In this document: positions 58,767 through 63,860 of the stretch, piece after piece
How the letters are laid out: every line of letters begins with the position of its first letter
How positions within the stretch are numbered: the first letter of the stretch is position 1
Assembly (NCBI GenBank): GCA_013306675.1
Contig: JABLUY010000154.1
Location: 29,089 to 93,088, forward strand
Direction of reading: 5' to 3'
Source: Thraustochytrium sp. TN22
Taxonomy: Eukaryota > Sar > Bigyra > Thraustochytrida > Thraustochytriidae
DNA: 64,000 nt
Position numbers and translations under genes: made by a program
Notes under the pieces: generated by a model
The model's input: the letters and a program-made list of their open reading frames with translations, nothing else
Database searches by the model: none
What the model was told of the DNA's origin: nothing

Positions 58767-61700
58767 TCACGCGTTCTGGAAAAGTTCGAGGATCCTCATA
58801 CGATCACTGAACATACTCACGCCGAAGCGGCGGAGTTCAGTATGCGATAGCATCCGGCACCTGGAGAGGGTGCCGTAGCCTTCACGAACGAACGCCTCGT
58901 AATACCTTTCCTGGTCAATCGATGCGAGCAGACTGCGCACCTTTCCTTTGGGCTCTGCCAGGGGAAAGAGGTCGTCCATATCATCGCTAGAGGGGCTGTC
59001 GCTCTCAGGCTCTGCAGTTTCTGAAAAGGCACGCAACGCATCGATGAGAAGCTGACGCTCCGTAAAGAGCGCAAGCCCAAGCCGGCGCAGGTCGGCATGG
59101 CCTATCCCCCTGAGGCTGGACGGGGAGTCATAGCCTGCGCGAACCAGCCGCGATTCCAATCGCGCTTGCCCCACGGAGGCTAGTACGGACCGCAGAGTTG
59201 TGCGTTGGCCGCCGCTCGGCGCCGCGGCTCGACGGCCCTGGGCACTTGGTCGTGCAGAGGGCGCATCTACACGTCGGAAGGCAGAGATGAGACGCTCTCG
59301 TTGCTGATATGTAGAAACCCCCATGTCGCGCAGCGCCCTGTGTGACAGCTCGCGGCACTCGGACAAAGTAGCGTCACGAAAGAACGATCGAGAAGCCAGG
59401 TTGGCGGCGTTGTGCATGGCGAGAATGTGATAAATGATTCGTGCCTCGCTGGGTCTGGCTGCTGCGGTCGTGCTTCCCCGTCGCGCCGACTTGCTCGACT
59501 TGCTCGACTTGCTCGAGTCGGACGCAGTGTCCTCGGATCCAGAGGACGGTGAAGCGGATTCCCGAATGAAGGCTATAACCTTAGAGCGTCGCGCTAGGCC
59601 CACGCCGGCGTTCTTGAGTGCAAGGTCGCTGCGCGGGTTCTCGGCAAGAACATCCTTCACTGCGAATCCGGCACCCAAGACAGCCTCCAGCTTGTCACTC
59701 TCACCCACCGACTCGAGCGCCTCGCGAACCAGATCATGGTTCGACTTGGTGCCCTTGCCTTTACCTTTGCCCTTGCCCTTGCCGCGCTTACCAGAGCGCT
59801 GCCCGCGCTGTGGCGAGCTGTCCTTGGCCTCAGGCTGCGCCCCAGACACCTTGTTGGGCAGGAGCTTGGAGAGCACCACGATAAGTCGCGCTCGGTCCGA
59901 GAACCGCTCCATGCCCGCCTTTTCCAGGTCCTCGTGTCGAACGTCCGCTGCCCTGGCCAGAGTGGTGAGTCCCGCCCGTTGCAACAGGGCCGCATATTGT
60001 CCCAGGCCGCGCGCCTCAAGCCTCCCGACGATGACGGTCCAATCGTCAGGCCTTGACGAGACGCGGGCTTTCTTCTCTCTTTTCGAGGTCTTCTTTCGCC
60101 GGGCCGTCTTCTTCGCTTTCTTTCTTCGCAGGAGCGCCGCACTCAACGCTTCAAGGACCTGATCGCGTTCTGAAAAGCTCATCATGCCGGCACCACGCAG
60201 GCTGCCGTGAGAAAGTTCGGCCCAACTTGTGGCCTCGCGGAAGCCAGCGTCGCAGAGCGGCTTGTAATACTTCGCCATCGAGATGGATTCCAAAACCTCC
60301 CGCAGCCCGCGGCCCTCCTCCTCGTCTTCGCTACGGGAGCTCTTGGCCTGTCTGCGAGACGAGGGAGGATCACGAAACGCGTTGACAAGCCTCTCCCGAG
60401 AAGAATACATGGGCACCCCCATAGCCCTGAGATCAGAGTGATTCAGCACCCGCGCTCTTGCGAGGGTTGTCACGCCGCCGCGTTTCAGGTTGTCGGCAAA
60501 CTCCTCGAGCTGCGAATGTCGAAGAACGCGCTCGATAGCCTGCTCCTCGTCCTCCGAGTCGCTTGAGCCCGACGAAGATGAGCTTGAGTGCGTCGTGGCT
60601 TTCAACCCATTCAATGCGTTCATGATGCGAACGCGGTCGCTGTAGGTGGGGACGTGCGCCTCGGCCCTAAGAGTCGACATAGTGACCTTCTTTGCTCGTG
60701 CGAAAGTAGTCACGCCACAACGCTCGAGAGCCCTGGCGTACTTGCTTAGCCCGGCCTCCATGAGCGCCCGCTTGATCTGCGCCTTCTCGGACCTTGCATC
60801 TGAACTTGAGCTCGAGCTTGAGCTCGAGCTTGAGCTCGTGCTTGAGCTCGTGCTTGAGCTCGAGCTTGAGCTCGAGGACAACGACGAGCTTTTCTTCTTC
60901 GCGGACTGAGACGCCTCCCGCACACAAGTCAGGAAGCGTTCGCGAGCAGCAAAATATGCGACACCAAAGCTTCGGAGTTCCGCATGCGACAGGCGACAGG
61001 CTTCGGCCAAGGTGGTCACGCCGTGTCTCTCCAACGAGGAGAACAGAGATTCCTGGCCGCTCGCCTTGAGCGCCGCCCTGAGCTGCGCTGCCTCAGACGC
61101 CGCACTTGAGCGCGAGCGCGAGGAAGACGTCGAGGACGAGGGCGATCTTGCGCGCCCGCGCACCCTCCTCGTCCTGCTGCTGCTGCTGCTCCTGCTGCTG
61201 CTGCTGCTGCTGCTGCTGCTGCTGCTGCTGCTGCTGCTGCTGCTGCTGCTGCTGCTGCTGCTGCTGCTGCTGCTGCTGCTGCTGCTGCTGCTGCTGCTGC
61301 TGCTGTCGCCGCCGCTCTTGGTCTTGCTCCTGCTCGTGCTGCTACGAGAGGCAGACCTGCATGCCTTCAAGATCTGAAAGCGCTTCGTCATGTACACGCC
61401 AACATTCTTGAGCTCCATGTGTGACCCTTGTTTGCCCTTCTCCAGCGTGAAACCGGCTGCCAGCGCCTTCTCTAGCATGTCCGGGACACCCAATTCACGA
61501 AAGATGCGGGCAAGAATCTGACTGTCTCCCCCGGCACCGCCATCGGTACCATCGGTGCCACTACCGTCGCTGCTGCTGGCACTGCTGCTGCTGCTGGCCC
61601 TGCTGCCAACGCCTTGGGTCTCGGCCAGGACCGAGCGCATCGTCAACGCGCGTAAAATGAGCAGACGCGTCGGCAGCGGAACTCCGACTTGCGCGAGTTC

Positions 61701-63860: not shown

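What the first reader, a model, noticed from the sequence alone, without database searches (positions are those of the whole stretch)
58767..63860. Pseudokinase fused to about twelve SAM-like repeats
The kinase-like domain lost the catalytic Asp (HRN for HRD) and DFG (DVG), and is followed by about a dozen SAM-like modules separated by Ser-rich linkers. SAM domains polymerise, so one chain with twelve modules could form a large signalling platform. I know of no standard family with this layout. This is my main candidate for an undescribed system component in the window.
Basis: partly seen in the sequence, partly recalled or inferred. Interest (0 to 1): 0.76.

Follow-up and report, generated by a model that had tools for sequence, protein, structure and literature searches.

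The report
Dead kinase carrying twelve docking modules
This gene makes a protein-kinase look-alike that has lost key parts needed for catalysis and carries twelve small protein-docking (SAM) modules in a row; it belongs to a small gene family in one microbe, probably of scaffolds, with a tentative hint of kinship to a cell-death switch.

Summary
One open frame (58767-63860, minus, 1697 aa) encodes an N-terminal region, a kinase fold without the catalytic Asp (HRN) or VAIK Lys (DFG reads DVG, its Asp kept), and twelve SAM modules. A model of module 1 matches solved SAM domains. The gene is not alone: the same 37.9-Mb genome, perhaps a thraustochytrid, has six close paralogues in two tandem clusters, all pseudokinases with 2-11 SAM modules; the one pair tested is under purifying selection. 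The seven form one clade (100/99) beside kinases that carry ARM-repeat arrays; four of those seven keep HRD, DFG and the VAIK-type Lys. So catalysis was lost and the C-terminal arrays differ within one family. No SAM-bearing relative appeared in three word-based protein searches. The N-terminal domain of the ARM kinases weakly matches the MLKL four-helix bundle (best E 0.0014-0.0064 with three of five profiles, absent with two; versus 102, 103). Most likely a catalytically dead multivalent scaffold; a MLKL-like death platform is a low-probability, testable reading.

The parts
58767..63860 (-). whole reading frame, 1697 aa (frame stays open upstream to the contig end)
63111..63743 (-). N-terminal region, aa 40-250, alignable with the six SAM paralogues (20-25% identity) and weakly, through its profile, with one ARM kinase
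62265..63116 (-). pseudokinase fold, about aa 249-532, with an acidic insert (Asp/Glu repeat DNA 62494-62535)
62754..62756 (-). codon of Asn369 at the catalytic Asp position (HRN)
62250..62264 (-). RRSTR motif just after the kinase fold; RRS(S/T) is present in 7 of 7 SAM and 4 of 7 ARM members aligned
61851..62060 (-). SAM module 1 (modelled)
61626..61823 (-). SAM-like module 2 (no Pfam hit on its own)
61341..61535 (-). SAM-like module 3 (no Pfam hit on its own)
61174..61305 (-). (CTG) tract of 44 copies that encodes the longest poly-Ser linker
60906..61109 (-). SAM-like module 4 (SAM models below cut-off)
60591..60803 (-). SAM module 5
60357..60563 (-). SAM module 6
60126..60317 (-). SAM-like module 7 (no SAM Pfam hit on its own)
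59856..60059 (-). SAM module 8
59553..59753 (-). SAM-like module 9 (weakest; no Pfam hit on its own)
59268..59459 (-). SAM-like module 10 (SAM_2 below cut-off)
59019..59219 (-). SAM-like module 11 (SAM_2 below cut-off)
58770..58961 (-). SAM module 12

Best explanation
A catalytically dead scaffold from a kinase family of this lineage. Shown: kinase fold without catalytic Asp and VAIK Lys, twelve SAM modules, six sister genes of the same layout, kinship to kinases that carry ARM arrays. Inferred: the pseudokinase domain works as an allosteric docking piece, perhaps for the intact kinase-ARM paralogues (as KSR does for RAF or STRAD for LKB1; analogies from memory), and the SAM array, spaced by Ser- and Arg-rich linkers that could be phosphorylated, binds many SAM partners at once, perhaps its own sisters, so that one chain nucleates a large signalling assembly. 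The different array lengths (2 to 12) would set the size or the partner choice of the assembly.
Confidence: 0.45

Rival explanations
1. MLKL-like death or immunity platform. The N-terminal domain is a divergent MLKL/HeLo-type four-helix bundle; the kinase-like domain is its switch; the SAM array gathers copies so that the bundles can act on membranes.
For: A profile of the N-terminal domain of six ARM-branch kinases (A3) hits MLKL first in the PDB: E 0.0014-0.0071 with 154 columns (6 of 11 matches), 0.0044-0.033 with 220 columns (6 of 9), 0.0064-0.047 with a seventh member added (6 of 11), over nearly the whole bundle and in the same place ahead of a kinase domain. The SAM-clade N-terminal profile finds one ARM kinase N-terminus (C300) as its best hit outside its own members among 398 open frames (E 0.0033 for 10,000 sequences). 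MLKL-type bundles occur with dead kinase domains in animals and Arabidopsis, with an intact one in wheat Pm13, and HELL domains with kinase/pseudokinase domains in fungi (passages of PMC10951266 and PMC12881547).
Against: Profiles of 124 and 126 columns lose MLKL at E <= 10. Other helical proteins score close: HIP1 0.011 and 0.025, TRAF2 0.08. The MLKL entries are one protein family and count as one hit. The SAM-clade profile does not hit MLKL; it finds only one ARM kinase, and the reverse search, ARM profile against the same 398 frames, finds none of the SAM-clade N-termini at E <= 20. hhalign of the two profiles gives E 0.0028 but 11% probability. Pfam MLKL_N matches 1 of 6 ARM-branch members at 7.8 bits against a cut-off of 27, 0 of 7 SAM-clade members, and elsewhere in the genome one below-cut-off match. 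No usable model of the domain.
Confidence: 0.13
2. Protein-docking adaptor without large assembly: the SAM modules each bind a different partner (SAM or non-SAM), with the pseudokinase as one more binding site, as in Plasmodium pTKL.
For: Modules differ (20-36% identity to module 1), M2, M3 and M9 look like a subtype by eye, and the charge pattern of polymerising SAM domains is not seen. Plasmodium pTKL, a pseudokinase with one SAM, binds SERA5 through its SAM and PP1 through RVxF motifs (passages).
Against: Does not by itself explain why arrays of up to twelve exist in one family; no partner is known.
Confidence: 0.25
3. Decaying or dispensable duplicates: catalytic loss and repeat growth without function.
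For: Tandem clusters, repeat-driven Ser tracts, long branches, and the highest dN/dS of the three parts in the SAM tail, 0.539/1.116.
Against: Seven frames of 784-1943 codons without inner stops, dN/dS 0.26 over the kinase domain of the pair tested, HRN in 5 of 7 members.
Confidence: 0.08

Closest known systems
EphA10 and EphB6 receptor pseudokinases
   Same: Pseudokinase domain followed by a SAM domain described as an oligomerisation domain (passages of PMC7586955); Eph SAM domains are among the best matches of the module 1 model
   Different: One SAM and a receptor ectodomain (recalled); here twelve SAM and no Eph family in Pfam apart from the SAM_EPH model
Plasmodium pTKL
   Same: TKL-type pseudokinase with a SAM domain and low-complexity stretches; proposed scaffold (passages of PMC6544628)
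   Different: One SAM, MORN motifs, SAM ahead of the kinase domain
MLKL, plant MLKLs, wheat Pm13
   Same: N-terminal domain ahead of a dead or intact kinase domain (passages); weak profile match of the ARM-branch kinases to MLKL
   Different: No SAM or ARM array in MLKL (recalled); match lost with shorter profiles and never direct for the window's clade
Liprins, CASKIN, ANKS1, SARM1 (multi-SAM proteins)
   Same: Tandem SAM modules, several of which make oligomers (passages of PMC10252437)
   Different: Two SAM, or three in liprins, which the review calls the only group with three; no kinase domain (recalled)

Membership tests
SAM domain (PF07647, PF00536) | score over the curated cut-off | tested here: met
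   whole protein SAM_2 126.4 against 20.5; alone 5 of 12 modules pass
SAM domain (PF07647, PF00536) | compact five-helix bundle | tested here: met
   module 1 only: model pLDDT 85.0, five helices; SAM entries lead. The other eleven were not modelled
SAM domain (PF07647, PF00536) | head-to-tail polymer interface (acidic mid-loop, basic end-helix; recalled, found in some SAM domains only) | tested here: inconclusive
   crude charge counts, mean +1.4 and +0.9 over twelve modules
protein kinase superfamily (PF00069) | kinase fold by profile | tested here: met
   63.0 bits against 31.7
active protein kinase | HRD Asp and VAIK Lys | tested here: not met
   N369 and, by alignment, R272; 7 of 7 clade members lack both
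MLKL | N-terminal four-helix bundle | tested here: inconclusive
   ARM-branch profiles: best E 0.0014, 0.0044, 0.0064 with three, none at E <= 10 with two (102, 103); window's clade: no MLKL at E <= 5
MLKL | pseudokinase domain after the bundle | tested here: met
   pseudokinase domain after the N-terminal domain; whether that domain is the bundle is open
MLKL | membrane permeabilisation on activation | not testable with these tools
   needs an experiment
Eph receptor pseudokinases | ephrin-binding ectodomain | tested here: not met
   no such Pfam family in the frame; the ATG lies 140 bp from a contig end, so a further upstream part is not fully excluded

The most novel reading that the evidence does not exclude
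A protist, perhaps a stramenopile, has its own MLKL-type family: four-helix bundle plus kinase. In one branch catalysis was lost and arrays of 2-12 SAM modules stand where the sister branch has ARM repeats, giving a built-in assembly platform for a regulated cell-death or immune switch, phosphorylated by the intact ARM sisters as MLKL is by RIPK3.
Probability: 0.1. Interest if true: 0.87.

Novelty: new variant of a known kind. Interest (0 to 1): 0.56.

Why it matters
Known pseudokinase-SAM proteins that I met here have one SAM and known multi-SAM proteins two or three; this one has twelve, in a family with graded array lengths (2 to 12), which makes a natural series for asking how array length sets assembly size. 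If the MLKL link of the N-terminal domain holds, necroptosis-type switches would reach into a protist branch outside animals, plants and fungi, and the loss of catalysis and the difference in arrays could be followed inside one genome.

Tried and rejected
Frame artefact: rejected, because two domain families lie in one frame and six paralogues repeat the layout. A unique gene: rejected. Plain SAM polymer: left open; charges do not support it. MLKL identity: left as a lead, because two shorter profiles lost it, the reverse profile search failed, and Pfam MLKL_N found only a below-cut-off match, E 0.103, in a frame that I read as a Tim44-like protein (recalled); the same Pfam search also rang below cut-off in one of 14 control genomes. 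Protein searches: none among 7989 scored candidates, two fungal kinases among 2987, 103 proteins among 7992, none listing PF00536 or PF07647 (checked by eye). They score only candidates of a certain length that share 5-residue words, so distant relatives can be missed. Organism: the SSU rRNA family search never ran; the guess of a thraustochytrid rests on ten tandem acyl-carrier domains in one frame on C124, which I recall as a mark of PUFA synthase, and on the 37.9-Mb genome, near the 38.6-43 Mb of the smaller thraustochytrid genomes (passage of PMC12258536); another thraustochytrid in print has 62 Mb and 45% GC (PMC7073664 passages), whereas this window has 67% GC.

Full report
Observation. 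The frame at 58767-63860 (minus) reads 1697 aa without a stop from an ATG. The window lies at C60:29089-93088 and the contig is 93088 bp long, so the ATG is 140 bp from a contig end; the frame stays open upstream, and the true start is not certain. Pfam finds a protein kinase domain (63.0 bits, cut-off 31.7) and SAM_2 (126.4 bits, cut-off 20.5). In the kinase part the catalytic Asp is Asn369 (HRN), the VAIK Lys is Arg272 by alignment, no Glu lies in the stretch aligned to the C-helix, and DFG reads DVG with its Asp389 kept; Asn374 is kept too. HRN for HRD is known from PSKH2, and similar changes from HER3 and the JAK2 pseudokinase domain (passage of PMC7586955).

A family. A search of the genome with aa 1-560 gives six close relatives: two near each other on C39 and four in a row on C277. 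All six carry SAM over a Pfam cut-off, and by the self-profile the seven have 12 (window), 11, 7, 6, 5, 5 and 2 modules (i-E <= 0.01 for 10,000 sequences; the profile was trained on the window protein, so its own count is favoured and the others are lower bounds). All seven lack the catalytic Asp (HRN in five, HRH and HHN in one each) and, by alignment, the VAIK Lys; the DFG triplet is altered in seven of seven, with its Asp kept in four. More distant relatives carry ARM-type repeats and no SAM by Pfam (7 of 7 scanned): C199, C300, C248 and C415 have HRD, DFG and the VAIK-type Lys; C18, C453 and C80 do not have both HRD and DFG. A further relative on C331 is degenerate in the part fetched, and its C-terminal part was not read. 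RRS(S/T) stands behind the kinase fold in 7 of 7 SAM and 4 of 7 ARM members. In a tree of 21 rows the SAM group is one clade (100/99) and SAM plus ARM together stand apart (99/99) from seven other kinases: three canonical ones of this genome, two TKL-like ones of this genome and two fungal ones (labels mine). C80 has a very long branch. Whether the SAM clade arose inside or beside the ARM kinases is not resolved.

Selection. Between C277a and C277d dN/dS is 0.192/0.729 in the pseudokinase, 0.224/0.651 in the N-terminal domain and 0.539/1.116 in the SAM tail (Nei-Gojobori counts with Jukes-Cantor correction). The dead kinase fold is therefore kept by selection in this pair; the window gene itself was not tested in this way.

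N-terminal domain. The SAM clade can be aligned over an N-terminal region (20-25% identity to the window protein). Its profile finds, as best hit outside its own members among 398 open frames, the N-terminus of the ARM kinase on C300, collinear, E 0.0033 for 10,000 sequences; but the reverse search, with the profile of the ARM branch, finds none of the SAM-clade N-termini at E <= 20, and hhalign gives E 0.0028 with only 11% probability. The ARM-branch domain hits MLKL first in the PDB: E 0.0044-0.033 with 220 columns (6 of 9 matches), 0.0064-0.047 with one more member (6 of 11), 0.0014-0.0071 with 154 columns (6 of 11), for instance over columns 2-142 against residues 3-149, and at the same place ahead of a kinase. 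Against this, profiles of 124 and 126 columns do not find MLKL at E <= 10, other helical proteins come close (HIP1 0.011; TRAF2 0.08), the SAM-clade profile does not find MLKL, and Pfam MLKL_N stays far below its cut-off. The MLKL matches are constructs of one protein family and count as one hit. I hold this as a lead.

Mechanism. I commit to a scaffold: catalysis lost, partner docking kept, SAM array for multivalent binding. The linkers are Ser- and Arg-rich (39 RS/SR pairs in the open frame) and so could be phosphorylated; that is inference.

Comparison. EphA10 and EphB6 are pseudokinases followed by a SAM domain (passages of PMC7586955), and Plasmodium pTKL has a SAM ahead of a pseudokinase domain (passages of PMC6544628). 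A review of multi-SAM proteins names two SAM domains, or three in liprins (passages of PMC10252437). The Phytophthora kinome paper lists SAM in two kinases and armadillo in one TKL kinase (passages of PMC3019232). Protein searches in a set of 5.8 billion gave no SAM-bearing relative (word-based, so not exhaustive). Paper searches listed no description of this layout; of the papers listed I read only the passages named here, plus passages of PMC12881547 and PMC10951266 on MLKL relatives.

Organism. Unnamed. I take the genome for eukaryotic from gene content (for example RGS and R3H/AN1 helicase genes in the window, and some thirty SAM_2 matches in the genome against none in 14 control prokaryotes). 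It has 37.9 Mb, the window has 67% GC, and a 3044-aa frame holds ten tandem acyl-carrier domains, which I recall as the mark of thraustochytrid PUFA synthase. Smaller thraustochytrid genomes of 38.6-43 Mb are in print (passage of PMC12258536). The rRNA test that would help never ran.

Noticed in passing
L025, L034, L044 (C39) and L027, L036, L035 (C277): Clusters of two and four pseudokinase-SAM genes; the largest on C277 (C277d) has a second N-terminal domain and two SAM modules ahead of its kinase fold.
   Followed up: partly
L029 (C2:28500-38400): Two neighbouring long frames with SAM domains (4 and 1 SAM_2 stretches in the parts read) and, in one, a below-cut-off PH match; no kinase match in those parts.
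   Followed up: partly
L048 (C418:135100-136200): An 826-aa frame whose N-terminal stretch matches the domain of the ARM kinases, with an ARM match further on in the same frame; no kinase match in the 366 aa fetched.
   Followed up: partly
L050 (C331:98000-99300): A frame with a weakly similar N-terminal stretch (E 0.00155; 0.17) followed by ARM-type matches; no Pfam hit in the 308 aa fetched.
   Followed up: no
G000:C124:29160-32300: Ten acyl-carrier domains exactly 327 bp apart, of nearly the same score, in one 3044-aa frame.
   Followed up: no
G000:C422:96425-100975: Very regular ARM matches at steps of about 264 bp in a 2959-aa frame.
   Followed up: no
window 34624-38364 (+): SMUBP-2-like helicase with R3H and AN1 zinc finger.
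   Followed up: no
window 53278-54888 (+): RGS-domain protein.
   Followed up: no
window 39484-43194 (+): 1236-aa frame with leucine-rich repeats.
   Followed up: no
window 57383-58648 (+): 421-aa frame, tail to tail with the pseudokinase gene, no Pfam family over cut-off; looks like a coiled coil to the eye.
   Followed up: no
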